Position numbers and translations under genes: made by a program. From the IMG/VR virus record IMGVR_UViG_3300042900_000746, positions 62,001 through 126,000 of that record: a stretch of DNA of 64,000 bases. One strand, given 5' to 3'. This stretch comes from a virus. The notes under the pieces were generated by a model that did not search any database, had not been told where the DNA came from, and worked only from the letters and a program-made list of their open reading frames with translations. Below are positions 1 to 63,769 of this stretch, piece by piece (the stretch's first letter is position 1; each line of letters opens with the position of its first letter).

Positions 1-3000
1 GCTCAATACGTTATTAACAGTGGCATTGTCTAAGAAGTTCTTGTTAATTGAAGTCAATGACTTAACAACAACTGCATTAAAGTATTCTACTATTCCACCT
101 TTATCTATACTGGTATCAATATAATTTGCTCTAGCAAACTCAATAGCTTCCTTAAAGTTTTGGTTGGAAGTACTATCTGCACTAGATTCACTGGAAGAAT
201 TATTTGTACTTTGTAAATTATTTACAAAATCTGAACCCAATAGAATTGAGAACTCATCTAAAGCTCCAGCTGAACCATTTCCAGTAGTATCATTGAATTT
301 TGCGATAGGATTTGCAATAATTCCAGATCCAGTAAGTATATTTTTATAAAACTCTGGAAATTCATTTTCGTTATCAGGGTCTAAACTAAACGCATCAAAA
401 AATATTTGTTTAACACTTTCATAATTATGATAACCAAATCTAAATTGATCCCAGATATCTTCAGCCTGCCTTAAGGTTCTGCCATCTCCAGCAATGACTG
501 ACACTGAGGCATCAAAGTTTTCATCATAATATGATCTAGCCTCAACGCTAACTATATCTAACGGAGAATAAACTGGAGCAAATGAAACTCTTCCAGTTCC
601 AGAATCACCTCCCGTTGTAGTTAATTCATCATCTAGTATTTCATAGAGATTATCTCTTTTTAGACTATCATAGTCATCGCCAGTAGCATCTATGACGGCC
701 TGGAAATAAGTTTTTTGATCACCTTCTTTTACGACATTTAATGCATTACCGCCGTATTGCAAACCTTCGACATTTGATACCATATTAGTATCCAATGGCT
801 TATACGCATTTAATGAATCATTTATGGCGATAGCTCTTCTTTCTATCGTATCTGCCGAACCACTTCTATCTCCTGATGCTGTTCTTTGTATTGCATAATT
901 TACATCACCTTCTTTTGGTTTAAAGGATCCAAAACCAATTAACTGAACTTCATCTCCCTCAATTTTTTCTCCATTTTCACCCTTTAATGAGAAGTCTGAC
1001 ACTGGTGCAACTGCATCTGCTATAACTCCAACAGGAACATTATCCGGAACAAATGCCATAAAGCATTCTTGCATAATGGGATAAGGTCTAAATCCAGAAT
1101 TTCTCCAGTTATTCATATCTCCACCACCACCCTGTGCTGCCCTAGAGACGACCATGTCTTCTTCTTTAGAATTTCGTGTAATTACACCTAAGTAATAAGC
1201 TGCATCTGGCGACACTACTGCATCAGACAATTGATAATCCTTAGCGGTGCCGTCACTATCAACTCCACTAATTGTTTTTTGACTACCCCATAAGAAGTAT
1301 GCTGGACGACAAACCACCGCTCTTCTATTGGTAGGGTTGTAAACTAAAACTTTTCTAGATTTATAATCTTTTACTGTTCCATATAGATCTTCAAAATCAT
1401 AATTAGATTTAAATTGACTAATAGTATCTTCATCTGCGCCAGTTCTATTGGTTTCACTCTGGGAGACTGGGTTATATGGCCATCTCATGGCTATATAGAA
1501 TTGTTCGTCTTCAGCTGTAGCTGGAGTACCCCATTCCTTATAGGTTAATTCTCCATAATTATCTGATTGATATTCAAAAGAAAAATCATCATCAACATTT
1601 TCTTTTTTTATTACACCTGAACCAATAGACCCTGCTGCATTAGTCGAGAGATCTATTCTTGGCAGCGGGACCATTACTTTTCGTGCTTCTGGATATAATT
1701 TTATTGCTTCTTGATTAAGTTGTCCAAAATTTAATGGATTATCAAGATTAATGGTGTCATCAGACGGGATCAGTGTTTGTTTTGTTTCTTCAAAGAAAAT
1801 ATATTCTAAACTTTGAAGTTTTAATAAATTATTATAATAGTCCTTATTACCTTCAGTTATATGATCTCCATCACTGTCGTCCATATGATCTTTGATATCA
1901 CGTGCCAAAGAAATAAACGGAGCATTAATTAATTGATCGTCAGGGAGATCTTCATTTGCGGTAAAGTATGGGAAACTGTATCTTGGCGGAAGATTGGGCA
2001 GCTGCTTATGTTTATCTTGTTGTATAGCTAGGGTATCTTCTGTTCCGCCACCAACGACTCCTACTGGTAAGTGTAAACCAACATTAACATAACCTTTAGA
2101 TACTGGCAATTTAGCTAATATTTTAGTTGTGTCAGATGGATCGTAATATGTCATAGACGGTTCTGAATAAAAGTTTAATATTTTTCCAGCTACTTTTGAT
2201 GTAGGTGCGTAGACGCCACCAGAAGTTAACATGGATTGAGACATATCCTGAATTGTTTGACTTGGCTCTGATGCTTGAAAAAAGGCTGCGTAGTCAGCAA
2301 GGGGGTTGGAGTCTTTATTGATTTTATCTAAAATAGATATAAGATCTTGATCTGGTTGCTTCATCTGAGGAGGAATGATTCCTAATTCCTCAGCTTTTTC
2401 TTGCCCAGGAAAACCTGTTGTAATTGGGACTACACCAGATGTATAAAGCCAATGTGGTTTGCCATAAAATACTGTCGACCTATCTTCAAATGGTCTAACC
2501 GCTACAATATAATTAGGTAGCAATCTTGCGCACATTTGAAATAAATCCCAAACAGTTCTCATATAAGTTTGAGCTTTAAACGAGACTTCGTCAAAACCGG
2601 GTAAATCATCATCAGAATTAGGAGATATAATTCCCATAGTTCTGAATAGATTAGTTCCACCTCTGCCACGTAGTACTCCAAGCAACCCTGATCCAGCTAT
2701 GGCTGCAGTAACCGGTCCTCCTAGTGCAAAAACTCCTGCGGTTATACCAGCGCCGAATAAACCTTTGACTAATCCAGCTCTTCCTTCTGAATTTACAAGT
2801 TGGTTATCTTCTGTTAAGAAATCTAATGTGCTATTTGCTCCAGTATCTAATAGGCCATCATTTTCTAACTCTGAATTAGAAATTAAGTCATTCCAAGTTC
2901 TATCGGTCAACCTGCCAAGATAGCCTTCCATTCTTTCATTGTGGCTATTTTCTTGGGTAAGAGATGATGCCGTAGACCATCCATCATCTAGGTCACCACC

Positions 3001-6000
3001 AAGAAATTGAGCAATGCCCGTTCCATTTCCGGGATAAATATTTCTTTTATATATTTCAAGATCTACTTGAGCGCAGAAGTTAGCAAATAATTGGCTAACT
3101 GCGGAAAATGTATTGCCTCTATAATTCATGCTAAAACCCTCGGTAATTCCAACAGCTTTATTCATGAAACTATTATTGCTTCCAGCAATACTAAATGCTC
3201 CAGTTATACTATCCCGAACAGCGTCATTCTTTGCCCGCTCTCCTGTAGTCAATGGCTCATACAAAATATTGCCAAAGTGTCTAATGCCAAATCTATTTTC
3301 AGAAAATACTGTTCCTCTTGTCGCATGAGCTATAGCTTCTCTTGTCCTAGAAGCGCCCATAGAAAGTAGTCTTACCATTAAGTCTCTAGGCTCTGACATA
3401 TACATGCCAGTATCAACGCCGCCATCGATCTTTCCGCTACTGCCTTTTTTATTTACTGAATTGATTACTGCGCCTAATTCAATTGCGTCTGACTGTGCTG
3501 TAATTGTGACAATTTCACCTTGTTCAACATTGGTAATAACTCCATTGAAAAGAGTTTGCAGTGAGTTTGGATTTGATCCATAACCTGCTCTTAAATGAAC
3601 CCTTACTCCTGGCTTTAATCGTATATTAGCTATATCAACAACATATTCATTTCTCATATGTCCAAGAATATTTTTTGACATATTTAAAGTTCTTTCAATA
3701 ATAGAACTTAAACCATCAGTTAAAGAAAGTGGGTCATTATTTCCTTCAGTATCATTAGGGTTAAATATTTTACTAGATTCATTCTTTGTTAATTTACTGT
3801 AAAGATTAGAAACTCTGAAAATTAAAGTATCACCTAATAAATCTTCTGAGCTTACTACAGAGAAGTCAATAATAGATTGTAGACCATAGAAGTTGTCGAA
3901 CAGTTTAACGCCCGCAAACATACCGCCTTCATCTATTAACCATAACATATATGTTGGAAACGCGCGTAGCATTCGGCCTGACACATCTCGGTAAGATGCA
4001 TCGACCATCATAGTCTCCCAATGTGATTGCACATCACCTGTATAGGCGTTTTGGTATTCAGAAACTGCTTTTGCCCCAGAGACACCTGTATTAACAGTGG
4101 TATTTCCAGTTTCTGGAGTCTGTACATCTTTTATGAAATTAGATGAAAATTTGGTAACCCCTGAATTGGCGGAATCACTTTCATCGGTGACCTTCTTAAT
4201 ATTCGTGCCATTAGCGGTTAAGTAGAATCTACCATTGTCTCTACTAATATATCCAAAATGAGTGCCTGCTGCAGTTTGCAAGATCGATGGAATTTTATTA
4301 TCTAATATATCAGCTGGATCTGATGCAGGTACTGTAAAAATTTGTTTATGAAAATCAACTTCATCTGGATCAAAACTGACAAATTCTTCACCTTGTATGT
4401 TAAAGGCTCCGCTCAAAGCTGCTTCAATAGAATTAGCGTTTGCTGCATCATTCGGAGATAAGTCTCCCTGCTGAAAACGAGCTGGAGTAACTGCATCAAA
4501 GAATGGATTTGTTTCACTAGTTTCTTCAGTTAATGTAATGAAATCAGTCAATAGTTGCACATTTGTGGCACTGCTATAGTCTGTGTTGCCGGTAACAACA
4601 TTTCTTAGTAAATGAATAAATCTAGATAATCCAATTTGATTTGCAATTATGTAATCTTTCATTTGCTGCACAACGTCTGAAGAAGCTATAGTATCTTCTC
4701 TATTATTGTATAACTGAATAAATTCTAATATTTTTGCAGTTATCCCTAAGCCATCAGAACCTTCACCGCCCCATCCACCTGAACCATCGGAATGAGTATC
4801 AAAATTATAGTCTTGAATTTTTGAATGCTGTGTACTAAAGCTGTTTACTACATCTCTATCAAACATTTCAAAACTTCTGAAGTAATAATCTGGATCTAAA
4901 TGCCCTACAACATCTCCGTCAGAATTTTTTAAACTTAAAGGAAAATCTGGATACGCATTGAACGTTCCCCAGAATTGTTTAATTCTTAAAAATGGATTTT
5001 TCTTTGTACTGAATTGTTGTATTAATTCTTTTTGCTGAGTACTGCTAAGTTCTTCTCGTTTTTGTTGGAATATGTCAAAGTCTATTAGAGTTAATTGGAC
5101 ACTGTATGCGTGAGGATAATTAGGTATCGTACTAACATTATAACTTAGTGGTAAGACATATTTAATTCCGCACAGTGCCGTAATAATATTCTTAATACCT
5201 AAGAAGCCAATTACTCCAGTAGCGTGCTCTAGTCTTGCTAAATTAGATATATGATCAAAAACATTTTTTAATTTAATTAATTCTTTTTCACCAATTACAG
5301 TCATAGATATACTGATACTGCTGTCCCTGCCACCAATGTGCTGATAGGTTGGCTCATCTTGCATTTGTATTTGTAATTTAGCCAGGCTGTTACCCATGGA
5401 TACTGTCACGCCATTAATAATCACGGCATGAGGATCTAAGTCAACCCGTATCATCGGAACTTCCCATTCTTTGAATGAGTAACCACTTTCCCTAATTACA
5501 TTTCCATCTTCATCTATATTGTAATTACCTTTGGCTCTTGCTGCTTCCATTAAAGATTGAATAGGCCCACTCATAAAAAATCTTTGATATAAAGACACAC
5601 TAAATGCTTGAGCTAATTCATTTTGAACACTTTTTTCAATAGAAGTTCTCATTTCATCTGTAAGATCTGGAATTCCAAGTTTACGTATCTTTTCTTCAGT
5701 TATTCCACTCTTTATTAAGTCTAAGTAAGATACTGGATCTCTTGAAATATCAGTGAATGAATCTTTCATACCATTAAGGGATACATTATTTATAAACTTT
5801 CCTTGGAAAATGTATGTGCCCTGTTCAGGATAATTCGCTGCTGAAGTATTAAAGTTATTCTTTAGCCAATCTGCTTGAGTCTTAGTGATGCTTTTATTTT
5901 CAGCAATAAATGAGGTGACAAAAAACGCATATATCTGTTCAGCTTTATCGTCTGATGTAATACCGGCTGTCAATATATCTATAGAATCTTTTATTGTATT

Positions 6001-8391
6001 CGCTATTGATTTAGAATAAGAGTCTGAAAGTGATATATCTTGAACTTCTGCTAAAGACACCCCATATGATTCTGATTGATTAATATCTATGCCAAACCTA
6101 GAAAGTATTCCTTGCCAAGTATTTTGCCCTAGATCAGTTAACGTTTTTTCCTGTTTAGTTCTGAATGAAGATGTATCAGGCAAATAAATCTTTGTTTGAG
6201 TTTCAGCTGGGGCAAATAGAGAAATATTGTTTCCATTTTTCCATTCAGAAATTACGTTAATATTTAATACATCATTATCAAATACATTCGGCGGAACTGC
6301 GGGTGTTTCAGGATCTGTGTCAATATCAGAATCAGTTATGCCAATAGCAAAACCAAAGTCAGTTACAGTTTTTCCAGTAACAGTTTTAGCGGTTAAATCC
6401 ACTTCTTTTACATCAGACTGCTTTAATAGAAATTCTTCATTAACATAGTCATGAAGATGTCCTGCGGCCTTGCCCATATAATGACGATATTTACCCCAAT
6501 GAATTGCTTGATTAAAGTCTTTGATCATTGGAAGAAATGGTTGGTGATTAAAATTCAATAATTCAATATCAACAGCGAGTGCAAAAGGATAATTTGGAAT
6601 AGTTGAAATACTCATACTAGAAAGGGCTACTGCTGTTATTCCGTGAACAGTATTTAAGTAATTATTCTTAATAGGGAGAATTGGAGAATATTTAAACGCC
6701 GCGACTAGGCCTCTTAGTGAGGAAAGAAATTTATCTATCTTTATTTCAGTATCTCCACCATTTTTAAAATCAATTTTAAATGTATCATTTAAATCTATTC
6801 TCGACAAGGCGTCTACTGACAATCCCCAAATTTCTTCATAGTTTGGAAAAAACAATCTCATTCTAATACTGGTCTCTTTATATCCAGAATTAAACTTAGG
6901 ACTGTTCTTCTGCCTAATGGCCGCACCAGTAAGGCTTCCAGTTTTAAAATTAGAATTTACATCTATTGATACAGGGGGAACATAGAAGTTTGCTGCACCC
7001 AATCTTAGGTGAAAATTATCTGGAGTATTTGGAGCTATATTAGCTCTGAATGGTGATGTCTTCAATACATTTTGAATACGTTGCGATGTATTAGTGAACT
7101 TGTAAGCCATCTGGAAAATTGCTCTTGCAGTTTGACCAATGGCAACAAAGTTTCCATAATCAGTAGCTGTAAGTACAGAGGTAACACCAAAAGCTTTTTC
7201 TAAAGATAATGCAAAGTCATCTGCGTTATTGAGGGTATCTTCTTCTCCTCCGCCTTTACCATTATCGGAATAATCTCCAACAACTGCTAGTGCATCGACC
7301 AGGAAGGTTGTTAAACTTGGGAAGTAAAAACTTATCGCTGCAAAAGTTAAGGGATCATGTTTCAACCTTTGTATTACTTCGCCTAATGAAATTAACCAGG
7401 GTAGATCTACAGTAGGATCTACTACATCATTTGCAGATCTCTTCAGTGTAAATTTATTTCTAAGCCTTTTCTTTGCAAACTCTGATATTTCATAGGCATA
7501 AGATGCTAGGTGGAGTAGGCCAATTTCTTCTATTTTATTCATTATAGTTTCAAAATTATTTCTTCCAGATGACTGTTCTGCTAAACCATTCAATCCTTCA
7601 AGATTTAAATTTGAAAAAACTCTACTAAAACTATTGACATACTTAAGGGATGATTCATAATTTTCATATGTAATACCATCTAAATTTCTTCCCTTAAAAG
7701 TTCTTTCCAAAACTCCAGGATAATATGAACCTAAGGAAAATAGACTATAAATATCTTCAAGCTGTCCAATATCTGATTCTATAACCGTATCTTCTGAATT
7801 ATCCCTCTCTTCACCATCAGTTGCGTCTTCAGGATTTTCTGTATTAGAATCTTTAAATGAAGATATTCTACTTTTAACAAATTCCAAAAAACATCTATAT
7901 ATTCTAAAACCAAATATGATAAAAACGTTTTGGTCATACTTAGCATTAATAAAATTATTTTGATAAAAATGAACTCTTATTTGAGCCATTGTTGTAGATG
8001 GAGTTAGCTCATATTCCGTTGCATAAAACCTCAATATGTCTTCTGTCCACGTTTTAGCAACTGCATTTCCTACAAGAGTGGCTATGCATGAACTATACGC
8101 ATCGACTGCTATTTGGTCATTTTCATCTAAAAATATTAATTGAGATAAATTTAAATCATAATCTTTTAACTCAATTTTTTCTGAATTAGAATTAAATTCT
8201 CCGGATCCATCTTTAATGAGATCTCTCATTTTAAGATATTGATCTGCCTCACTGTACGGAGTATAAGATGTCTCTTCATCATTCCCTATTGAGGGATCCA
8301 ATAATAGGTCAATATACCTCGCAAGTGAATCTAGCGCATTATTGCTTTTTAATGTTGTTAGCGCGTTAAATGATTGGGGACTGATAGCCAT
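1..8391 (-). CDS. Giant baseplate/hub fusion protein, at least 2796 aa, 3' end outside window
   Basis: The frame stays open from an ATG at 8391 (good AGGA site 8 bases upstream, directly after the 147-aa gene) to the left window edge in every stretch I translated, so the C-terminus is missing. A tube/baseplate-like segment occurs twice: GIxxV...ISTIPNYPxAxxV near residue 597 and again near residue 1088, about 490 residues apart. Residues about 1584-1634 read like a tail hub (gpD/gp27 type) barrel: KPGVRVHLRAGYG, then LFNGVITNVEQGE and VTITAQSDAIEL. A short Gly/Ala hydrophobic stretch (about residues 1880-1910) follows. Position after the tape-measure candidate and the next giant gene agrees with baseplate genes. 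Hub and baseplate role is inferred; no lysozyme motif was seen in the parts I read. A protein of this size that joins domains usually found on separate hub and wedge proteins is unusual. Confidence 0.8.
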   Translation of the reverse strand, partial: MAISPQSFNALTTLKSNNALDSLARYIDLLLDPSIGNDEETSYTPYSEADQYLKMRDLIKDGSGEFNSNSEKIELKDYDLNLSQLIFLDENDQIAVDAYSSCIATLVGNAVAKTWTEDILRFYATEYELTPSTTMAQIRVHFYQNNFINAKYDQNVFIIFGFRIYRCFLEFVKSRISSFKDSNTENPEDATDGEERDNSEDTVIESDIGQLEDIYSLFSLGSYYPGVLERTFKGRNLDGITYENYESSLKYVNSFSRVFSNLNLEGLNGLAEQSSGRNNFETIMNKIEEIGLLHLASYAYEISEFAKKRLRNKFTLKRSANDVVDPTVDLPWLISLGEVIQRLKHDPLTFAAISFYFPSLTTFLVDALAVVGDYSDNGKGGGEEDTLNNADDFALSLEKAFGVTSVLTATDYGNFVAIGQTARAIFQMAYKFTNTSQRIQNVLKTSPFRANIAPNTPDNFHLRLGAANFYVPPVSIDVNSNFKTGSLTGAAIRQKNSPKFNSGYKETSIRMRLFFPNYEEIWGLSVDALSRIDLNDTFKIDFKNGGDTEIKIDKFLSSLRGLVAAFKYSPILPIKNNYLNTVHGITAVALSSMSISTIPNYPFALAVDIELLNFNHQPFLPMIKDFNQAIHWGKYRHYMGKAAGHLHDYVNEEFLLKQSDVKEVDLTAKTVTGKTVTDFGFAIGITDSDIDTDPETPAVPPNVFDNDVLNINVISEWKNGNNISLFAPAETQTKIYLPDTSSFRTKQEKTLTDLGQNTWQGILSRFGIDINQSESYGVSLAEVQDISLSDSYSKSIANTIKDSIDILTAGITSDDKAEQIYAFFVTSFIAENKSITKTQADWLKNNFNTSAANYPEQGTYIFQGKFINNVSLNGMKDSFTDISRDPVSYLDLIKSGITEEKIRKLGIPDLTDEMRTSIEKSVQNELAQAFSVSLYQRFFMSGPIQSLMEAARAKGNYNIDEDGNVIRESGYSFKEWEVPMIRVDLDPHAVIINGVTVSMGNSLAKLQIQMQDEPTYQHIGGRDSSISISMTVIGEKELIKLKNVFDHISNLARLEHATGVIGFLGIKNIITALCGIKYVLPLSYNVSTIPNYPHAYSVQLTLIDFDIFQQKREELSSTQQKELIQQFSTKKNPFLRIKQFWGTFNAYPDFPLSLKNSDGDVVGHLDPDYYFRSFEMFDRDVVNSFSTQHSKIQDYNFDTHSDGSGGWGGEGSDGLGITAKILEFIQLYNNREDTIASSDVVQQMKDYIIANQIGLSRFIHLLRNVVTGNTDYSSATNVQLLTDFITLTEETSETNPFFDAVTPARFQQGDLSPNDAANANSIEAALSGAFNIQGEEFVSFDPDEVDFHKQIFTVPASDPADILDNKIPSILQTAAGTHFGYISRDNGRFYLTANGTNIKKVTDESDSANSGVTKFSSNFIKDVQTPETGNTTVNTGVSGAKAVSEYQNAYTGDVQSHWETMMVDASYRDVSGRMLRAFPTYMLWLIDEGGMFAGVKLFDNFYGLQSIIDFSVVSSEDLLGDTLIFRVSNLYSKLTKNESSKIFNPNDTEGNNDPLSLTDGLSSIIERTLNMSKNILGHMRNEYVVDIANIRLKPGVRVHLRAGYGSNPNSLQTLFNGVITNVEQGEIVTITAQSDAIELGAVINSVNKKGSSGKIDGGVDTGMYMSEPRDLMVRLLSMGASRTREAIAHATRGTVFSENRFGIRHFGNILYEPLTTGERAKNDAVRDSITGAFSIAGSNNSFMNKAVGITEGFSMNYRGNTFSAVSQLFANFCAQVDLEIYKRNIYPGNGTGIAQFLGGDLDDGWSTASSLTQENSHNERMEGYLGRLTDRTWNDLISNSELENDGLLDTGANSTLDFLTEDNQLVNSEGRAGLVKGLFGAGITAGVFALGGPVTAAIAGSGLLGVLRGRGGTNLFRTMGIISPNSDDDLPGFDEVSFKAQTYMRTVWDLFQMCARLLPNYIVAVRPFEDRSTVFYGKPHWLYTSGVVPITTGFPGQEKAEELGIIPPQMKQPDQDLISILDKINKDSNPLADYAAFFQASEPSQTIQDMSQSMLTSGGVYAPTSKVAGKILNFYSEPSMTYYDPSDTTKILAKLPVSKGYVNVGLHLPVGVVGGGTEDTLAIQQDKHKQLPNLPPRYSFPYFTANEDLPDDQLINAPFISLARDIKDHMDDSDGDHITEGNKDYYNNLLKLQSLEYIFFEETKQTLIPSDDTINLDNPLNFGQLNQEAIKLYPEARKVMVPLPRIDLSTNAAGSIGSGVIKKENVDDDFSFEYQSDNYGELTYKEWGTPATAEDEQFYIAMRWPYNPVSQSETNRTGADEDTISQFKSNYDFEDLYGTVKDYKSRKVLVYNPTNRRAVVCRPAYFLWGSQKTISGVDSDGTAKDYQLSDAVVSPDAAYYLGVITRNSKEEDMVVSRAAQGGGGDMNNWRNSGFRPYPIMQECFMAFVPDNVPVGVIADAVAPVSDFSLKGENGEKIEGDEVQLIGFGSFKPKEGDVNYAIQRTASGDRSGSADTIERRAIAINDSLNAYKPLDTNMVSNVEGLQYGGNALNVVKEGDQKTYFQAVIDATGDDYDSLKRDNLYEILDDELTTTGGDSGTGRVSFAPVYSPLDIVSVEARSYYDENFDASVSVIAGDGRTLRQAEDIWDQFRFGYHNYESVKQIFFDAFSLDPDNENEFPEFYKNILTGSGIIANPIAKFNDTTGNGSAGALDEFSILLGSDFVNNLQSTNNSSSESSADSTSNQNFKEAIEFARANYIDTSIDKGGIVEYFNAVVVKSLTSINKNFLDNATVNNVLS

Positions 8392-8856: not shown

Positions 8857-11800
8857 TTAATAATTGGCTGCCATTTCCGCATATGGATCCTGGGCTACAT
8901 TGGGGATTCTATTATACATAGTAGTGTTGATATTGCCATTAACTAACCCTCCTGCAGCAGCATTAAATCTTCCGACGGTGTCTTGGTCTCCATATAAGTT
9001 TACTTTGTAACTGACGCCAGGATCATAACCTGGTCCTCCAAAGGTGCCAATTTGTGGAACTCGATTTGGATAACCGCTTTCATAGGCGGATCCGCCTGGA
9101 AGTAGTGGGGGGCCAGCCATATCTTCGTGAGTCCTATCCCTGATCTCTGAATAGGCCAAGCTTCCTGCTATTAAGCCTCCAATTGCCAGGGCGCCTTTCT
9201 TGATAGTAGGATTTTTGAAAAGATCTTTAAGATCTCCCATTTTTTCGCCTATTCTTTTATATACTGCTTTGTTCTCTACGAGTCCATCGTCTAGGTCTGT
9301 AATTGAATTAATGATATTATCAGCTAGTCCATCATCTCCAAATGCTGTTCTGGCAGCATCAGCATCTAATACACCAGCTGTTCCTAGGGTCCCTGGTGTT
9401 ACATCATCTATTAGGCCTGTCGATGGATCAATATTTATTAATCCAGCTTGCGCTAGTTCATCTTTTTGCATTTGAGCTCTTATTAATGCTACCTGATGAT
9501 TAGCGTTTCCTCGTACCAAATCGTCAGCAATTTCATCTGACTGACCTAGTAAAGCTCTAAAAACATCATTTTGTTCGTTAGTTGTTTCGAAGATATCGAG
9601 CATTGTGTTCGTGCCGTCATCTATTCTTTGCTGGGCTTCTTTCACGGACTTTAGTCTTTTTTTAGCTTCTATTTCCAAGTCCTCCATAGTGCCTTTATTT
9701 CCGAGGCTAGCTCTGACTTGATTGGCGTAATCTTGATCAAAAGATTCATAATGTTTTACTCTTCTGTACGTTCTAACATCTTGTATTGCTTTAGCTGCCC
9801 TTTCCGCGTCCTCTGGTAGCTCTCCTGCTTGCAGCGACGTTAAATGTCTTAAGCCTCCAATATCAACTCTAGTTCCAGCTGTTACTTTATCTATTGCATT
9901 TACTAAATCTACTGATGACATTCCGACTAATTGAGAAGCTTGACCTATATCTCTTAGTACCTTTTCGCCTATATTATCCAAAAGTGCAGAGTGATTAAAT
10001 AATTCAGTTTGATTCATTGTCTTAATGCTATCTGTGGTCGTATTGAATATCCTATCTAGCTCATCCTTATGGGTAGCAATAATTGATCGAGCAACTGAAT
10101 CAGCTTCCCTAGAAGTTCGTGTTGAAGATAAAATGTCGTCAGATGGAATCCTAGATATTGAGGACCTGTTCACAGAATCAAGATATGAAGAATATCGAAC
10201 GCCTACGTCATGCACCCTGGATATTGATGCAAATGAGTGGTCTGCGTTTAGGCCAATTCTTTTTATTAATTCCTCTTTAATCTTACTTGCATCATTAGAA
10301 GCGGATATATCTTTTAATTCTTTTAATGTTTTGTCTAAATCAACAGCTGTTGCAAGCCCTTGCCTTTGAGCGTCTTCCATACCTGTAATCATATTGTCTA
10401 ATATAGATTTTGTGTCTGTGTCTCTAATTCTATCTTTCAGTAGAAACTCATCAATACCTAATAGAAGACTATCGTCAGAGGAGCCAACTGCGCGCGAGAA
10501 GCCAATCATTTTTCCTAGTCCCTCGATGCTTTGTTCACCAAAAACGTCAAGCCCTAAATCTGCTCCAGACAGTCCTAATTTTACTAGCGCTTTTTGAACT
10601 CCTACATCTTTCATATAATTAGCATTATCAGCTGAAGATAGAAGGCTTCCTACATTTTGAGATAGATTCCTCGAGGAGGCAAAACTTACACCAACGGAGG
10701 CGTCAATTGCCTCGTCCTGTGCTAGTAGGCCAATCTTATAGTTTTTCAGCATGTACTCTTTGGTTGCTTTAGAGGTACCTGCATCATTTAAGAATGCTTC
10801 ATATTGATTCAATACACTGCCAACTGTCATCGATCTATTGACGTACACTCCAAGAATATCTCCACCTTCAATAGCTTTTTTGACACTAAAATCATCTATT
10901 GCTGTCTGAAAAATTGCCCGCAGAGCCGGGTCTGTCTCATAGGTGGATTCCATCATCTTTAGCATTTCTTCAAAATCTGCGGCTTTTGAAAATTTATTTA
11001 TCATTTTTTGATCAAAATTGTTTGCTCTCATTGTTTCCAGGAAATCATCCTTCATGTCAAAAGAACCTGATTCTATAAAAGCTTTAAATATTCCTTCTCT
11101 AGTATAATCTGGTCGTTTGCTTAAATCTTTGACACTCAATGTAGAAGACCCATATCTTTTTATTTTTTCCGCTCTTTTTATGTCTAATTTTTGTATTGTA
11201 GTTACTCCACGTGCTTCTAAATCTCCAAAAACATTTACTATAGCTTGTTCAAAATCATCTATATGATTTAAGGATAGTGTTTTGTCTTTTTTGACAATTT
11301 GTCCTTTAACAGTTGTTTGGTCAGTATGTTTACCATCTAGTATGTCTTGAAGAATTCTGTACGTTTTTTTATGGGCTGTATTGCTAGTTGATTGTGTTAA
11401 AGAGTCTAAGGATTTTCTAAATTCCATAACTGAAGAAGAATCTTCCCTACCCCCAAATAGACCCCTAATAGTATCTTGATCCATATTCATTCTAGCAAAT
11501 ATTAATTCTTCCGGGCCAGATGGCTGACGACTAATGTTGAACCCTAATCGAGTTAATCCTTGATTATCTTTATATGTTAAAACTTTTTCTAACACCTTGT
11601 CGTCTAAGTCGAATCCACCAAGAGCATGTCTGTATTTACCAATAGAGTCAGCCGGCAACATCATTTTATGGCCACTAACTCTAAACTTTAATATGTCGTG
11701 TTTTACATCGCCTAAACCCTCTATCGATATACGATCATATCCCCTGCCTTTATTCAGAATCATCTTTCCTTTTTCGGTTCCCATTAAAATTGCTTCACTG

Positions 11801-13725
11801 TCAATTGCAAAACGATGAGTGTCAGGAACAACCATTTGCATGAAGTCGCCCTTCATTCTAAATGCCTCTGTTGCAAAGAAGGTGTGCATCATGTTCATCA
11901 TTGTTGGATTTTGCTTTGGACTAACGCCACTCCTCATCATGTCTAATATGGAATTAGCAAATTCTTTATTTCTCACCGCAGAAAGACGTGAATGTGATGG
12001 GAGATGACTTATATCGCGCTGTGATGCTTCTTCTAGCATCGCCCTTACCTTACGGGGCACTGTGCCACTGTTGATTGCGCTTTCGAATTCTCGAAGAACA
12101 CTTTGGCCTCTTTGTTCCATTGCGTCCAGTGTTGCTCGATCAGCAAAAACTTCCGGATGAAAGGCAGCCGATACTGGATCCGAATACACTAACTCGCGCC
12201 CTGAGCCCATTCCGCTTAAAGTTAATATATCAGTTTTTCCTGCAAAACCTAATTCTGGCTTAAATGCAAATTTACTGGCAATCATTGTATATTTTTCTAA
12301 TTGCTTGTCGAATTCTACTGCTTGACCAGCTGTTTTCAAATCTCCGTATTTAGCAGCGTGGCCTCTGATGGTGAACTGGTCAAGTCCTCCAGTAGCTTGA
12401 GCCCTAGAAGTCTGTCCTTTAATATTTTCCAACTGCTTTATTCTTATTGCTAGATCTTCCATCTCCTGAGAAGAGAGAGGTTTACCTAAACCTTGCTGCG
12501 CATTTTTTAATTTGTTTTTCAGAACATTTATTTCTTTGCGCATCGTTGTGTCGGTATATCCAGAGATCTTTTTCGCATTCATCAAATCAGATCCGTCGTA
12601 CGCAAATTCGATATTGTCAAATAATTGTTTTACAAGACTTGCTCGTTTTTTGTCTCCATTAATAAAATTTGTTTCTAAATGTTTCATTAACTGATCACTA
12701 GCAAACTTGCCAGTTTTATTTGTTTCTTTGTATGCAAAGTCTGCGGAACGTATAACATTTTCAAATTCTGTTCTTTGCTTTTTAGTAAATTGGTTCAGTA
12801 TGCTTCCAACAAAATCTTCTGCATCTACGTTCTTATAATAAGCCGCTAACTCCTTACCTCTCATGGTGTTTCCAAAAGCTTTTGTTTTATCAGTTCCTTG
12901 ATAGGTCATTTTTTTCAATAACTCATACTGAGGATCTGGCACAAATATGGACGCGCTAAAAGTAGAACTTCCTCTTTTCCCAACAAAGTTTTCTAAATCA
13001 CCACCTGCTAAAGATACTTCTCTTTCAGAGGCTAATGACCTAAATCTTTTGGGTATTTTCAACAAATGGTCGACTAGTCTTCCAGATCTAAGTTTATTTG
13101 GATTCTTGCTAAGAACCTTCTCGGACATTACCCCTGGATCCAACATATCATGACCTGTCACGGATAAGAGTAGATTGGACTGATAACTAGTTAGCATGTT
13201 ACCTCCAGCTCTCATGGTTATCAATCTTGCGCTTTCATCATCAATAACAGTTATCCCCTGCAGCGAACCACGTTTTCTCAGTTTGTCTATCTCCATAGCA
13301 ATATTTTTAACTCCACCTTTGTCTTCATGGAGAGTTAACAAATCTACCTGCATATCTTTTATTGAACTTACGTCAATTCCGGCATCTTGCAGTAATTTGA
13401 TTTGGCTCGCTGAGAATGTCTGTGATTTGCTTTTTACGTCAGCCATTATTTCAGCCATACCACTTACTTTACTGCCTAATCTTGACTGTCCTGGTTTACT
13501 GTCTAAATTGTTAAATTGAGAAATTCTTAGTGTACCTGCTCGAGCAAAGGCTCTGTCGATAGATTTGAATGATTCACCAGTAGCACTCAAGACGAATTTT
13601 ATTTCATCTCCATCAGGTTCTATCTTTATAGCATTACCCATGCCATAAGACGTTCTCATCAAAGCAGATCTTGCGGCAGCCATTCTCTCTGGAAGGGTGT
13701 CGTACATTCTATTAATATCTACCAT
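8857..13725 (-). CDS. 1622-aa giant virion protein with RNA-polymerase-like barrel motif
   Basis: The start ATG overlaps the TAA of the 2212-aa gene (TAATG), which implies translational coupling. Mostly polar, helical sequence with a central stretch that resembles the double-psi barrel of RNA polymerase beta-prime: VVPDTHRFAI at residues 632-640 (compare RAPTLHRLGI), VSGHKMMLP at 683-691 (compare IEGKAIQLHP) and GGFDLDDK at 703-710 (compare ADFDGD). The acidic motif is not the canonical DxDGD. A weaker lysine-containing segment, AAKYGDLK, lies near residue 455. Around residues 1505-1525 there is a glycine-rich hydrophobic helix (KKGALAIGGLIAGSLAY) followed by a Gly/Pro-rich tail. Position between the tape-measure candidate and the baseplate giant would also fit a second tail protein. 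The polymerase reading is a hypothesis; that it is a real virion-operon gene is secure. Confidence 0.8.
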   Translation of the reverse strand: MVDINRMYDTLPERMAAARSALMRTSYGMGNAIKIEPDGDEIKFVLSATGESFKSIDRAFARAGTLRISQFNNLDSKPGQSRLGSKVSGMAEIMADVKSKSQTFSASQIKLLQDAGIDVSSIKDMQVDLLTLHEDKGGVKNIAMEIDKLRKRGSLQGITVIDDESARLITMRAGGNMLTSYQSNLLLSVTGHDMLDPGVMSEKVLSKNPNKLRSGRLVDHLLKIPKRFRSLASEREVSLAGGDLENFVGKRGSSTFSASIFVPDPQYELLKKMTYQGTDKTKAFGNTMRGKELAAYYKNVDAEDFVGSILNQFTKKQRTEFENVIRSADFAYKETNKTGKFASDQLMKHLETNFINGDKKRASLVKQLFDNIEFAYDGSDLMNAKKISGYTDTTMRKEINVLKNKLKNAQQGLGKPLSSQEMEDLAIRIKQLENIKGQTSRAQATGGLDQFTIRGHAAKYGDLKTAGQAVEFDKQLEKYTMIASKFAFKPELGFAGKTDILTLSGMGSGRELVYSDPVSAAFHPEVFADRATLDAMEQRGQSVLREFESAINSGTVPRKVRAMLEEASQRDISHLPSHSRLSAVRNKEFANSILDMMRSGVSPKQNPTMMNMMHTFFATEAFRMKGDFMQMVVPDTHRFAIDSEAILMGTEKGKMILNKGRGYDRISIEGLGDVKHDILKFRVSGHKMMLPADSIGKYRHALGGFDLDDKVLEKVLTYKDNQGLTRLGFNISRQPSGPEELIFARMNMDQDTIRGLFGGREDSSSVMEFRKSLDSLTQSTSNTAHKKTYRILQDILDGKHTDQTTVKGQIVKKDKTLSLNHIDDFEQAIVNVFGDLEARGVTTIQKLDIKRAEKIKRYGSSTLSVKDLSKRPDYTREGIFKAFIESGSFDMKDDFLETMRANNFDQKMINKFSKAADFEEMLKMMESTYETDPALRAIFQTAIDDFSVKKAIEGGDILGVYVNRSMTVGSVLNQYEAFLNDAGTSKATKEYMLKNYKIGLLAQDEAIDASVGVSFASSRNLSQNVGSLLSSADNANYMKDVGVQKALVKLGLSGADLGLDVFGEQSIEGLGKMIGFSRAVGSSDDSLLLGIDEFLLKDRIRDTDTKSILDNMITGMEDAQRQGLATAVDLDKTLKELKDISASNDASKIKEELIKRIGLNADHSFASISRVHDVGVRYSSYLDSVNRSSISRIPSDDILSSTRTSREADSVARSIIATHKDELDRIFNTTTDSIKTMNQTELFNHSALLDNIGEKVLRDIGQASQLVGMSSVDLVNAIDKVTAGTRVDIGGLRHLTSLQAGELPEDAERAAKAIQDVRTYRRVKHYESFDQDYANQVRASLGNKGTMEDLEIEAKKRLKSVKEAQQRIDDGTNTMLDIFETTNEQNDVFRALLGQSDEIADDLVRGNANHQVALIRAQMQKDELAQAGLINIDPSTGLIDDVTPGTLGTAGVLDADAARTAFGDDGLADNIINSITDLDDGLVENKAVYKRIGEKMGDLKDLFKNPTIKKGALAIGGLIAGSLAYSEIRDRTHEDMAGPPLLPGGSAYESGYPNRVPQIGTFGGPGYDPGVSYKVNLYGDQDTVGRFNAAAGGLVNGNINTTMYNRIPNVAQDPYAEMAANY

Positions 13726-16700
13726 TATCTAACTCCCGCCGAAACGTCAATGCCCTGTGAGCCAAAAGGATTCATAACTGGAGTAACACTTCCGGAAAAT
13801 CCAAATCCATTCATCAGTTGGCGCAATTTATCAAGAGTGCTATTTCCATCGCTGCTTTTCCCAAATTGGGGATAACTAGGATTAGCTAAATTTGCTTCAC
13901 GAATCTGCTGAGGGAAATATCCCATTTGAGACATTTCTATACCCATAGATTCTCCTGTTTTAATTTTTACTTGTTCTAAGTTTGTGTTGGGGTGCCATCC
14001 TTCCCATGACGCATCCGGTAGTTCATGCCGTGTAAAATAATCGTCGAGATCTGGTCTTTGTTCAACATTCATACCCCATGATGCTTCATATATTCTTCTC
14101 TCTAGACGTCCTGCAGTAGAGAGTATCCTGCCCCTTTCTCCTTCTGGAGCATTAAGCATGGCTTTAAAGTGTTCTCTTTTTCTTTTTGGAATAGATAGAG
14201 ATAATGTATCAATGTCTTTACCATAAAGATCCGCACCATACATTGTTCTTTTTGCAGCCATCCCATAGTCTAATGCTGCTTTTTCATCCCCTGAAGATTT
14301 AGCCATAGTTTCTAATCTTTTATTTTTTACATAATTTAAGATGTCCGAATATTCTTCTAATGCTAATTCTTTTTTTCTTTGCTTCGGTATAAATCTTTCA
14401 CCAGTTATTAATTCTGAAGCCTGCCCGTATGTTGATGCTGCCAGACCGGTAGTCACACCAACCGCTGTTCCCAGCAGTTTAGCTTTAGCTGTTCTGCCAA
14501 AAAGTGATCCGGCAATACCTAGTCCAGTCGCTGCTGTTATGGGATCTCTTTGTGTAGATTTGTCAATCATTGGTTTGATATAACTATCGTATGGTCTTTG
14601 CCATTCAGGGAACGTAGCACCATATACATGCTTCCTTTCCCAATCTTCAGTAGCTGTTCTTTTTCCTATTGTTTTGTTAATAGCAAAGTTGTCGGAATGA
14701 GCTATATATTCGCCAATTCTTCCTGCGCCAAATTTTAATGGATGTTGCCCCATTTCTTCAGCTGATGACCCCTTGTATTTATAATCAGTAAATTCATTTT
14801 TAGTTGCCATACTTTCAACTTGGGATCTTATATCAGCTACTTTATTTCTTTCAGCGGGACCTAAATCCATGCTGTCAATTTTTTTATCTAATGTTTTATA
14901 TTGCTGAGAATATGGCGCAACATCTCCTAATATTTTCAATTGATCTAATGCGCCGTATGATCCAGTTGAATCTGGATTTAATCTATTAAACCTTTCATAC
15001 CCTACTCCCGGTAGTCTCAGTTCACCTTCTTGCACCTTAGTGTATGGATCTCCTCTAGTGAAGTCCGTAAAATATTCAGAACCAGGAAGGAATGGATACT
15101 GTTTACCCATTGTGTTTTCTATTGGGTTTATATAGTCTACGCCAGTTCTTTCTTTTGGAATAAATCTTCTAACAATTTCAGAGAATTCCAGGTTGCCCAA
15201 TCCTTCTCTGTTGCCCAGCGGTGCGTCTCCTAATCCTCCAAGATTTAAATCCCAAAATGCTCGAGTACTTCCATAAGCTTTTGATGCCGACTGCAAAACG
15301 CTTCTTTGAGGCTGATAATCTTGCTGACCAAATCCTAATGATTTTCTTAAATTGCCAAAACCAAAACCATAGATACCAGCCATTTCTTGCATTCTGAATC
15401 CAAGCTCACCTGCCTGGAAGGAACTAGTACTGGGTTCTAACGGAGCACCAGCTCCGACTATTCTGGGAGCCATTACGCCAGACACCTTGGGTGGACCATA
15501 AGCTAAATCGCTGTATTGAGAGTTTACATCTTTTAGTGAAGACCTAACCATCGACCCAGCAGCGCCGGTACTTCCAGCTCTGCTAGCCAACATTGAGTTG
15601 ACCCCAGAGATGCCTGTAGCTCCGCTGGAGCCGATTGGTGAACCAGGCCTAGCTGTCATTGCCCCAGAGCCAGTCAGGGGCATTCCAGGGGGCCCTCCAG
15701 CCATATCTCTTGTGAACCCCACTCCGTCTATGTAGCTTGAAGTCATTCCATACGCAGACGCGTCATAGGCCCCAGATTGACCTGCATTTGTATAATTAGC
15801 CAATCCTTGTGCTGTTTCATCCTCGTGCATTAGCACTTGAGGCTTTAGTAGTTTTCCGACTGTCATATTTGCGAGTGGGACAAGTGGACCAAAAGGACCG
15901 GTAAAATATTCACCGCTGACTGGGTATGGTCTGTCTTCGTAGTGCTTACGTTCAAATCTATAAGGATCTAATGGTCTTAGTGGCGAAATATCATTATAAA
16001 ATAAGAATTTTTCAGCTGGACTTCCGTATGTATCACTGGTGAACATGGCGCCTGCTTGAAGTTTTCGATACCAAGAAGGCCTGTAATACTGGATCTTTCC
16101 ACCTTTAAATGGAGTATTACCTAAAGGCCAAAATCTTCCTTGTCTTATTGGTACTTCTCCCTCAACCAATTGCTCTTTCTTTTCGTCATATGTCATACCA
16201 CCAGGAGTCAGCCCTGCAGATAAAGACTGCAGTTCCATCGCACCTTTTGCTACCTGGCCCAATACTAATGGCGAATAGACCCTTTCTCCTCTGTCATCCT
16301 TTTCATTGACCATCCCACCCATTGTTCTATCTACAGTAAGTGCCGTAACTCCAGCTGCATACATTGGCAGTACCCTCTTGCCAACCATTCCTGTTGCAAA
16401 AAGGTCTAGTGGTCCCTTAAAGTCAGAAACATTTAACTGCATCCCCAGTGTACCGAAATATCTATTTAGTCTTTCTACGCCCTGAGAAACTGGTATGCTC
16501 GCGGTAGAGAAACTTTGTGGATCAGAATACGTTGTTAATCCAATTGCGCTTTTGATCGCACCCATTGGATCTCTTCCAAAAACTGTTCCAAAAGTTGGAA
16601 CAACAGTTATACTTTGCCCAGAACCAAGTGGGTCTACAGCTAAATCATCCGCCTGATACCCAGATGTCCCGAGTGCTTTTTGTTTTAAGGAAACTAGTGG

Positions 16701-19700
16701 TGAGAATTTTTTACGAATACCCGTAGAAATTTTGCTCATCTCTGACTTAGCAAAGGGGTCAAACATACTCTTTAAACTACCGTTATTGGATCTTGAAAGT
16801 TCAAACATCTCTACTGCACCAGCACGAGCGTTTTCTAAATTCCCAGCCGAGTGTTTAAATGTTTTAAATGCACTCATGTTGAACATAGTGGACAGAGCTG
16901 CTGCTTGAGCTTCAACTCTCTCCGATGAACTGATGGCTCCAGATTTAATTAATTTGTCAACAACGGTTTGCATTTCGATGAATATATTTCCACTGCTACC
17001 TGCTTGCATTTGATTAGATTGAGAAATGTACCTAAATATTTCATTTTTTAATTGATCTAATTTAGTGGTAATAGTCGGAGACTTTTCCGCCATTTGCGAC
17101 ATTGCATTGAGATTAGTAGAATCCTTTAAATTTCTTATTCTCGATGAAGAAGCGTTCAACATTGTTGGGTCTACGCCCTGTCTCCTGAGTTGTTGAGACA
17201 CTAGTTTTTGAGCTGCTAATAAATCATCTGCGAACTTGACAGCGTCTTCTGCTGTTTCGATTGAGCTAGCGGTTCTTCCTCCAAATGTGAATAGACCTGG
17301 GTTAAGAGTTTCTAGTTCTTTCATTACCTTGACTGGAGTGCCATATCTAAGGGATTCTTTAGACAAAGAGTGCATTCCCCTTAAGAGATCTGCTTCAGAA
17401 AAATCATCTACTACATTTCCCAGATCATCTACTACACGAAGCCCTCCACTTGTTTGTTTGTCTATTTTTATTAATCTTTCTTTTCCGCCAGAATTATATT
17501 TCAAGTCATCGCCAGATAATAGTCGAGCCATAACTCCATTATTACTTAAATCCGTAGAACGATTCTTAAACCTAGAAGCTAGTCCGAACAATGAGTTTGG
17601 TTGTTCAGGATCAATGCTCATTTTTTTCTTGAAACGTAATGCTCTTTCTCCACCAAGAATTCTATCTAAAAATTTTGAACCGCTTGAATCTCTAATCTCA
17701 TTAATTGTTTGACCCTGCATATTTGCCGCAAAACGAGTATGTCTTGTTAGCAGGTCTGTGGTATTCGTGGGCAGTGCTCTATAGGTTCCACTCATCAAAG
17801 AACTATGAATTGTTTCCGATACATTATCTGTATCAAAGGCCATTAATTTACCCTTGGAGCCTTTTGTTTTAAACCACATATGGAAATCAGATTTAGTACT
17901 AGCTCCCTCAGGCATAAACGGTTGGACAGATCTAGATGATACATACTGTAGTGGTGATCTATTGGCCATTTCCGAGAATGACCTATATCCAAATAGGTCA
18001 GCTGGATTGAATCCTAGAATTGGGATCTTAAACTCTGAAGCAAAAAAGTTTGCTGTTTTAGAAAATGTAGATTTAACTGATGTAAAATCTAATATTTGAC
18101 CGGATCTAGATTGATATACTCCATCCATTTTGCTAAATCCAATTGATTTAGAAACTGGATCGTTAATAGCCATTCTTGAAGCTAAGTCGTGGATTATCTT
18201 TTGTTCTGGTTCTGACATATGAGAGAAGCGTCCAGATTGTCGAGCTTCGTCAATTGTTAAAGATTTTAATCCGAATAGATTATGTCCACCGCCAGAAACA
18301 CCAGAAGTCATTTGACGATTCTTAATTAAGAAAGCTCTTAAGTCTGTAAATTGATTTGGATCAAAACCACGTTTTCTCAAGCCCGCTGTGACTATGTCAT
18401 TGGATACTTGTCGCCCAGTGCTATCTGTTAAATTTATTCCTAATGTTTGAGCAGTTTTTCTTTGCAAAAATTCTGTTTTAGCTGCAGTTTGTGGGCCAGT
18501 GAAATCATTATAGTTAGCCTTCATTGGCTTGAGTATTCCGCCACCAATTGTAGTTAAATCATCTCTATAAAATTTATTCCAGTTTTTTTCTATTTTATTA
18601 TTTAAACCTTTTTGGAATTCCTTAGAAGCAAATATATCTCTTGCGTCTTCAACTGAGTTCTTGAGCGCGTTGGGTTGAATTGCATCCTCAAAAGTTTTAC
18701 CGCCAGAGACTCCCTTGTATCTTTGTATTACTCTTGAAAAAAAGTCTTCACTTAGGCTTGCTGCGTCTGCGCCTTCTTCATAAATTTTAGTTTTACCAAT
18801 AGTTATTATATTGGTGCTTTCCATATTGGATCTTGGTAGTCGCACCTTTAAGTAATCTGTAAATTGTTTAGCCTGCTTACCGTCAAGCCCTCTTGATATC
18901 AACTGATCCTGAAGAAGATCTTTAAAAGCGTCAGTCTGTTGATTATATGCAAAGTTAGATCTTGGAAGGGATTCATTGCCTGGGCCCCCTCCGCCCATTA
19001 TCCTCACTCCTCTTGCAAAACTAGACAACCTACTAGAATGCTGGGACTGAATTTTGTGCATTGCGCTTTCTAGCGTTTGTGCAGCTTGAGGGGTGCCCCC
19101 CATTGACTTCAATACTCTAGCGTGAGCAATTGAATTTTCTAAGGCGTCATAACCTCTTCCTAAATTCTTGTATTCTTCTTTACCAGCAACAAATGCTTTT
19201 CTTAATCCACGGAATGCGGAGGGGAGTTCTGTGATAGATGCTGAAGTTTCACCAGAAGCGTCTTTGAAGCCCTTGAAGAATGCATTAGCTCCAGCCTTAT
19301 TTATAGCCTGCCTAGAAGCTCCCTGTGCTATCTCTGCATCGCGTGCCGCCTTGACTCCATGTCTAAGGCTCTGGAGATTTTGTACGAAACCCTGTTGATT
19401 TTGCGTGTAAGCCTTAGTGGCAGTGCTAAGTGCTCCTGAAGTTTGTGCAGAACTTTTTAGAAATTTGTTAGTCATAGTGGCAAAGTCGTGACCGACATCT
19501 GCCAAAGTTTCTGTTACATCAACAAAACCTTGACGTAATTTTTTATTAAAAGGAGTTAGATTTCGCATATCGTTCATTGAATACCTCAGGGTATTTAACG
19601 AACTCTTGCCAGCTCCTAATGCTGCTCCTGCGCCTTCAAATGGCGCTATCATAGTGGCCATCATAGTTAATGATGACTTGGTGAAATCAGCAATCACATC

Positions 19701-63581: not shown

Positions 63582-63621
63582 GTTCCTCAGGATCTTATGA
63601 TTCTGGGGAACTTCCTTTTTT
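63582..63621 (+). terminator. Intrinsic terminator of the 167-aa gene
   Basis: 13-bp stem GTTCCTCAGGATC with GATTCTGGGGAAC (two G-U pairs) around a TTAT loop, followed by TTCCTTTTTT. Strong and well placed. Confidence 0.85.
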
Positions 63622-63769
63622 GAGGATAGGTCATTGTCCTTTAGTAAGGTTCGCCATGGGCCAACGGATTCACTCGCGTTAAAGAGTAGACATGGAAGAT
63701 GGTTTTACCATTCGTAATAATCACGTTCAATACGTTAAGTTGAACAAAGACATGTTTCTAGGAGGAATC

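What the first reader, a model, noticed from the sequence alone, without database searches (positions are those of the whole stretch)
11600..11830. RNA polymerase beta-prime-like barrel in the 1622-aa virion protein
Three segments fall in the same order as in the second double-psi barrel of cellular RNA polymerase: VVPDTHRFAI (residues 632-640; beta-prime RAPTLHRLGI), VSGHKMMLP (683-691; IEGKAIQLHP) and GGFDLDDK (703-710; ADFDGD). The last is not a canonical DxDGD, and the spacing between the first two is longer by about 30 residues. From memory, crAss-like phages carry divergent single-chain polymerases with altered DxDxD motifs in their virions. If real, this would be a virion-borne polymerase fused to a membrane-helix tail in a contractile phage. 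The similarity may be chance.
Basis: partly seen in the sequence, partly recalled or inferred. Interest (0 to 1): 0.8.

Follow-up and report, generated by a model that had tools for sequence, protein, structure and literature searches.

The report
Hidden virion RNA polymerase in phage
A giant protein of unknown function, encoded among the tail genes of an uncultured phage, belongs to a previously unlabelled family of highly divergent single-chain RNA polymerases, and the same phage encodes a second, smaller family member in its early genes, so the phage probably injects its own transcription machinery.

Summary
The three motifs lie where stated (window 11596-11832, minus strand). Sequence searches of the 1622-aa protein alone find nothing, but 80 loci carry a positional homologue. 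Across 46-49 of these, GGFDLDDK is among the most conserved segments: Asp706/708/709 are essentially invariant, with Lys464, Lys489, Arg638, Arg733, Pro735, Glu740. The same genome encodes an 808-aa paralogue outside the window, with GGxDxDD followed by RxPxxxxE. The two families are homologous (hhalign E=6.9e-14; control 0.5). The model of a close relative of this paralogue has as its eight best PDB matches only single-chain two-barrel RNA polymerases: QDE-1 (E=1.4e-6), then phage P23-45/P74-26 gp64/gp62. The protein's own model ranks QDE-1 first among 350,542 chains, but not significantly (E=0.74). The first-barrel motifs of QDE-1 are present in order. Best reading: a virion-borne single-chain two-barrel RNA polymerase with altered aspartate spacing (DxDD, not DxDGD), paired with a non-virion paralogue in an early region whose genes share a non-sigma70 promoter-like element. 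Activity and virion location are inferred, not shown.

The parts
8857..13725 (-). 1622-aa protein P0001: virion-type member of the family (single-chain RNA polymerase core plus helical C-terminal part, membrane helix and conserved tail)
   Evidence: ORF; 80 loci with positional homologues; no Pfam/PHROG/PDB sequence match
10396..13143 (-). RNA polymerase core, residues 195-1110 (modelled)
   Evidence: AlphaFold2 pLDDT 84.2, pTM 0.85; Foldseek rank 1 in PDB is QDE-1 but E=0.74
13045..13059 (-). KxxKR (Lys223, Lys226, Arg227), invariant in both the virion and non-virion families
   Evidence: 44/44 and 40/40 rows
12592..12597 (-). Asp377-Gly378, counterpart of the DGxGxxS motif at the start of the first barrel of QDE-1/RDR enzymes
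   Evidence: 49/49 and 40/40; QDE-1 sequence NDGVGRMS
12334..12336 (-). Lys464, counterpart of QDE-1 Lys743 (R...KG motif)
   Evidence: 49/49; QDE-1 AVQGRFGSAKGM; PMC1750930 for Lys743
12259..12261 (-). Lys489 (KxE), counterpart of QDE-1 Lys767; spacing 25 here, 24 in the paralogue and in QDE-1
   Evidence: 49/49; PMC1750930
11803..11832 (-). VVPDTHRFAI (632-641), strand with invariant Arg638 of the second barrel
   Evidence: Arg638 45/45 in the virion family, not conserved in the paralogues
11653..11679 (-). VSGHKMMLP (683-691), strand before the catalytic loop; sequence itself not conserved in the family
11596..11619 (-). GGFDLDDK (703-710), proposed metal-binding catalytic loop, family signature GGxDxDD
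   Evidence: D706 47/48, D708 47/48, D709 48/48; 40/40 in the paralogues
11506..11529 (-). RQPSGPEE (733-740), invariant RxPxxxxE strand after the catalytic loop
   Evidence: R733, P735, E740 47/47; R503, P505, E510 40/40 in the paralogues
9145..9201 (-). Putative membrane helix near residues 1509-1527 (KKGALAIGGLIAGSLAYSE) followed by conserved GPPLLPGGSAYE tail
   Evidence: sequence and conservation of the tail
13725..20363 (-). 2212-aa structural-type protein P0002, upstream neighbour, homologous to KLEB27-3 gp31 and MTATph1 CDS26; anchor used to find positional homologues
1..8391 (-). 2797-aa (open-ended) baseplate-type protein P0003, downstream neighbour
   Evidence: PHROG 20474 E=7.7e-94; tblastn to KLEB27-3 putative baseplate protein
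63616..63629 (+). First copy of the TTTTTTGAGGATAG early element; the other copies lie beyond the window up to the non-virion polymerase gene (record position 131,365-133,791)

Best explanation
P0001 is a single-chain, two-barrel (double-psi beta-barrel) RNA polymerase carried in the virion. The first barrel (residues about 377-500) supplies Lys464 and Lys489; the second (about 620-750) supplies the metal-binding loop GG-F-D706-L-D708-D709, in which three aspartates are kept but spaced DxDD instead of DxDxD. The C-terminal helical part, membrane helix and conserved tail probably package it with the tail/ejection proteins and hold it at the cell envelope as DNA enters. There it would transcribe the early genes at the right end of the genome, most of them preceded by a terminator hairpin and a TTTTTTTGAGGATAG element; the last of these genes is the 808-aa non-virion paralogue, which would take over. 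Shown computationally: conservation, homology of the two families, structural resemblance of the paralogue family to QDE-1 and P23-45 gp64, gene order, repeated elements. Inferred: catalysis, virion packaging, ejection, and which enzyme reads which promoter.
For: Invariant Asp706/708/709, Lys464, Lys489, Arg638, Arg733, Pro735, Glu740 over distant homologues. Homology to the 808-aa paralogue family: hhalign E=6.9e-14 over 314 columns, from the DG motif through GGxDxDD to the RxP...E strand, 9.5e-9 with a smaller set; unrelated control 0.5. Paralogue-family model (pLDDT 87): the eight best PDB matches are all single-chain two-barrel RNA polymerases (QDE-1 E=1.4e-6 to 6.5e-5; gp64/gp62 E about 0.007-0.01), followed by isolated DPBB domains. 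P0001 model: QDE-1 rank 1, 849 aligned columns, E=0.74. QDE-1 motifs DGxGxxS, QxR...KG and the second Lys at matching spacing; QDE-1 catalytic segment LSGGDYDGD against LGGFDLDDK. The positional counterpart in Bacillus phage KLEB27-3, gp34 (labelled structural protein), has NRYPTINQ...ADYDGD and a weak Pfam RNA_pol_Rpb1_2 hit exactly there (E=0.015). The genome has its own Pol III alpha and DnaB-like helicase, so replication is otherwise provided for. Early region: 13 copies of the element in 8.9 kb, 0.11 expected, and a similar arrangement beside the paralogue gene in related phages.
Against: P0001's own model gives no significant PDB match (best E=0.74, TM 0.17); the fold claim rests on the paralogue. 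P0001 and KLEB27-3 gp34 show no detectable sequence homology. The catalytic motif is not DxDGD, and an RxP strand follows it. No coordinates were available to check that the Asps cluster with Lys464/Lys489. No mass spectrometry shows the protein in virions, and no activity has been measured.
Confidence: 0.83

Rival explanations
1. Two-barrel nucleic-acid polymerase, but not a transcriptase: a DNA polymerase or primase-like enzyme (PolD-like) that acts on the entering genome.
For: The two-barrel superfamily includes archaeal PolD, whose catalytic loop also departs from DFDGD (PMC4996933). Related giant proteins carry exonuclease domains.
Against: Best structural matches are RNA polymerases, none of those listed is PolD. 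The phage encodes Pol III alpha and a DnaB-like helicase. A virion/early pair is the known pattern of phage RNA polymerases (PMC10770324). The early region carries repeated promoter-like elements.
Confidence: 0.07
2. Tape-measure or ejection protein with a degenerate, catalytically dead polymerase domain kept for structure or DNA binding.
For: Location between tail genes and a baseplate gene, large helical C-terminal part and membrane helix. P23-45 shows that polymerases and tape measures can be one protein (PMC10770324).
Against: Catalytic-type residues are invariant over homologues that are only about 18-30% identical elsewhere, which decay does not give; the same residues are invariant in the stand-alone paralogues.
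Confidence: 0.06
3. Chance motif resemblance in an unrelated structural protein.
For: No single-sequence search finds a polymerase; P0001's own Foldseek match is not significant.
Against: Conservation, hhalign E=6.9e-14 to a family whose model matches RNA polymerases at E=1.4e-6, matching motif order and spacing.
Confidence: 0.03

Closest known systems
QDE-1 / RDR family (eukaryotic RNA-silencing RNA polymerases)
   Same: Single chain, two barrels; best PDB match of the paralogue-family model (E=1.4e-6) and top-ranked for P0001's own model (E=0.74); motifs DGxGxxS, QxR...KG, second Lys 24 residues later, GG before the catalytic loop
   Different: Catalytic loop GGxDxDD instead of GGDxDGD; invariant RxPxxxxE after the loop; phage virion context, membrane-helix tail; no detectable sequence match by HMMER
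Phage P23-45 gp96 (virion, fused to tape measure) and gp64 (non-virion) RNA polymerases
   Same: A virion and a non-virion two-barrel enzyme in one phage, virion one tied to tail proteins, non-virion gene among the early-transcribed genes (PMC10770324); gp64/gp62 are the next best structural matches; gp64 has a similar QVRM...KG...VKE stretch
   Different: P23-45 enzymes keep DxDGD and its tail is non-contractile; here the enzyme is a separate gene beside the giant tail proteins; no detectable sequence homology by hhalign
crAss-like phage virion RNA polymerase (phi14:2 gp66)
   Same: Giant virion-borne single-chain two-barrel enzyme in the tail/transcription block; ORF boundaries also vary among relatives (PMC7886860)
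   Different: crAss enzymes keep DxDxD; gp66 is not among the structural matches shown; different phage group, here with a tail sheath
Bacillus phage KLEB27-3 gp34
   Same: Same gene position between homologues of P0002 and P0003; structural-protein label; C-terminal membrane helix and tail
   Different: Canonical ADYDGD, exonuclease-like N-terminal part, no detectable sequence homology to P0001
phiKZ-type virion RNA polymerases
   Same: Virion and non-virion pair; polypeptides split
   Different: Multisubunit beta/beta-prime fragments; P0001 is one chain

Membership tests
Two-barrel (DPBB) RNA polymerases | Two double-psi beta-barrels forming the active-site cleft | tested here: met
   By structure search of the paralogue family plus homology to P0001; P0001's own match to QDE-1 not significant; barrels not inspected in coordinates
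Two-barrel (DPBB) RNA polymerases | First barrel supplies two conserved lysines | tested here: met
   Lys464 49/49, Lys489 49/49; Lys242, Lys266 40/40 in paralogues; spacing as QDE-1 Lys743/Lys767
Two-barrel (DPBB) RNA polymerases | Catalytic DxDGD / DxDxD in the second barrel | tested here: not met
   Invariant GGxDxDD instead: three Asps, different spacing. PolD also departs from the strict motif (PMC4996933). So it is filed as a variant of the superfamily, not as a member of a described family
Two-barrel (DPBB) RNA polymerases | Template-directed RNA synthesis | not testable with these tools
   Needs purified protein
Phage virion RNA polymerase | Present in the particle and ejected with DNA | not testable with these tools
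   Gene lies between tail and baseplate genes and carries a membrane-helix tail; mass spectrometry needed
Phage virion RNA polymerase | Early genes with promoters not of the host sigma70 type | tested here: inconclusive
   13 element copies in 8.9 kb, 0.11 expected; sigma70-like sites not enriched, 6 found, 9.0 expected. That the element is a promoter, and which enzyme reads it, is not shown
crAss-like phage RNA polymerases | Closest kinship to phi14:2 gp66, DxDxD kept | tested here: not met
   GGxDxDD; gp66 not among the listed structural matches
phiKZ-type multisubunit phage RNA polymerase | Separate beta- and beta-prime-like subunits | tested here: not met
   Both barrel regions in one ORF here; some relatives are split into 2-4 or more ORFs

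The most novel reading that the evidence does not exclude
A separate branch of two-barrel RNA polymerases, common in phages from environmental metagenomes and missed so far because its catalytic loop is GGxDxDD. Its second barrel may be circularly permuted: the predicted model places the loop between strands 3 and 4 of six, with the invariant RxPxxxxE strand after it, whereas in PolD the loop joins strands 5 and 6. Natural gene splits fall even inside this barrel.
Probability: 0.3. Interest if true: 0.9.

Novelty: new variant of a known kind. Interest (0 to 1): 0.78.

Why it matters
It adds a family of phage RNA polymerases, virion and non-virion, that no Pfam or PHROG model I ran recognises and that is found in dozens of environmental phage contigs. 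Its altered aspartate spacing questions how strict the DxDGD signature is, and surveys that rely on that motif will have missed it. The candidate promoter element and the two enzymes make the transcription programme of an uncultured phage group directly testable in vitro.

Tried and rejected
Pfam, PHROGs and PDB sequence searches of P0001, its profile and the paralogue profile: nothing relevant. hhalign of P0001's family against KLEB27-3 gp34, and of the paralogue family against YonO and gp64: nothing. Viral-contig scan with KLEB27-3 gp34: no match. Bacterial genome scan for the paralogue family to find a host: no relative. I considered GFDLDD as the counterpart of the beta-subunit GYNFED motif (from memory); the QDE-1 comparison (GG before the loop, strand after it) favours the catalytic loop instead. 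I considered RQPSGPEE as the displaced beta-prime RxP strand; unresolved without coordinates.

Full report
What was claimed. The segments are there: VVPDTHRFAI 632-641, VSGHKMMLP 683-691, GGFDLDDK 703-710.

Homologues. Alone, the protein matches nothing relevant in Pfam, PHROGs, PDB sequences or annotated phages. Scans with it gave only close relatives. Its upstream neighbour P0002 has recognisable homologues in Bacillus phage KLEB27-3 and Moorella phage MTATph1, and a scan with that alignment returned 80 loci, nearly all followed by a homologue of P0001, single or split over several ORFs.

Conservation. In 49 sequences (split ones joined for alignment only) the fully conserved positions include Lys223, Lys226, Arg227, Arg235, Asp377, Gly378, Lys489, Asp706, Asp708, Asp709, Arg733, Pro735, Glu740 and Asp1008. 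Counting only rows that cover each position in alignment A4 gives 44/44 to 49/49 for the basic residues and 47/48, 47/48 and 48/48 for the three Asps. Identity in this alignment falls to about 18%.

A paralogue in the same genome. Scanning the rest of the record (133,870 bases; the window is 62,001-126,000) for DxD motifs found an 808-aa ORF near the right end, on the other strand, with GGPDLDDTVKVHVRR...RNPNDFGEY. Its family was collected; every one of 40 aligned members has GGxDxDD and RxPxxxGE. Several related genomes carry two such paralogues. Profile comparison with the P0001 family gives E=6.9e-14 over 314 columns, against 0.5 for an unrelated profile.

Structure. The P0001 core (residues 195-1110, 58 rows) was predicted with pLDDT 84 and pTM 0.85. 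QDE-1 ranks first in the PDB over 849 columns, but E=0.74 and TM 0.17, not significant alone. Against predicted viral proteins it matches three uncharacterised phage proteins at E 9e-10 to 3e-6. A relative of the paralogue (60% identical to it, 40 sequences) was predicted with pLDDT 87. Its five best PDB matches are QDE-1 structures (E=1.4e-6 to 6.5e-5), the next three are the P23-45/P74-26 phage RNA polymerases (E about 0.007-0.01), and isolated double-psi barrels follow. This is the central evidence; it reaches P0001 through the profile homology.

Motif comparison. QDE-1 has, in its first barrel, DGVGRMS, QGRFGSAKGM and a second Lys 24 residues after the first (Lys743, Lys767). The paralogues have DGxxxIS, (Q/N)xR...KGN and NxKxE with spacing 24; P0001 has DGSDLMN, IR...LK and FKPE with spacing 25. 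A QDE-1 catalytic segment is LSGGDYDGDMAWV; here it is LGGFDLDDKVLE. The three-Asp content is kept, the spacing is not. Arg638 is invariant in the virion family only. The invariant RxPxxxxE after the loop has no obvious counterpart. In the paralogue model only three strands precede the loop in this barrel and three follow, while in PolD the loop joins strands five and six. A circular permutation would explain this but could not be tested.

Context. The gene lies between tail genes (sheath at 24,146-25,417) and a baseplate-type protein. KLEB27-3 gp34 in the same position has NRYPTINQ...ADYDGD and a weak Rpb1 domain hit there, although no homology to P0001 is detectable. The genome also encodes Pol III alpha, a DnaB-like helicase, a ribonucleotide reductase and a sigma-70 region 4 protein. 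At its right end most genes follow a terminator hairpin joined to TTTTTTTGAGGATAG: 13 copies in 8.9 kb against 0.11 expected, none of that density elsewhere, no excess of sigma70-like sites. Related phages have similar elements beside their paralogue genes. This parallels P23-45, whose virion enzyme transcribes pre-early genes including the gene of a second, non-virion enzyme (PMC10770324).

Limits. No coordinates could be examined, the record may be incomplete, the host is unknown, the supplements of the 2024 survey of two-barrel enzymes could not be read so prior listing of this family cannot be excluded, and virion location and activity are inferred.

Noticed in passing
G000 record 125,617-131,331 (window 63616 onward): Repeated [hairpin terminator]+TTTTTTTGAGGATAG elements, all on the + strand, between early genes; related phages have TTTTATGGGTAG in the same arrangement. 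Candidate phage promoter.
   Followed up: partly
window 52713-56300 (-): 1195-aa protein with DEDD-exonuclease-like segment (DIETTG...GHNLNFDID) and its own C-terminal membrane-helix tail; weak PHROG exonuclease hit. Possibly another ejected protein.
   Followed up: partly
L028, L029, L037, L040, L047, L063, L072, L092 and others: The P0001 homologue is split into 2-4 or more ORFs at many different points, in L047, L063 and L092 just before the catalytic loop; some split patterns recur in several contigs.
   Followed up: partly
L006:11460-18764 (KLEB27-3 gp34): Annotated only as structural protein; carries canonical ADYDGD and an exonuclease-like N-terminal part, so probably an unrecognised virion RNA polymerase.
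   Followed up: partly
L150, L153, L158: Some paralogue ORFs are extended to 1161-1395 aa; one family member shows a NADAR-like domain by Pfam.
   Followed up: no
L100:8481-8580: Tandem CTAAAAAGAAGGG repeats beyond the paralogue gene in a related phage.
   Followed up: no
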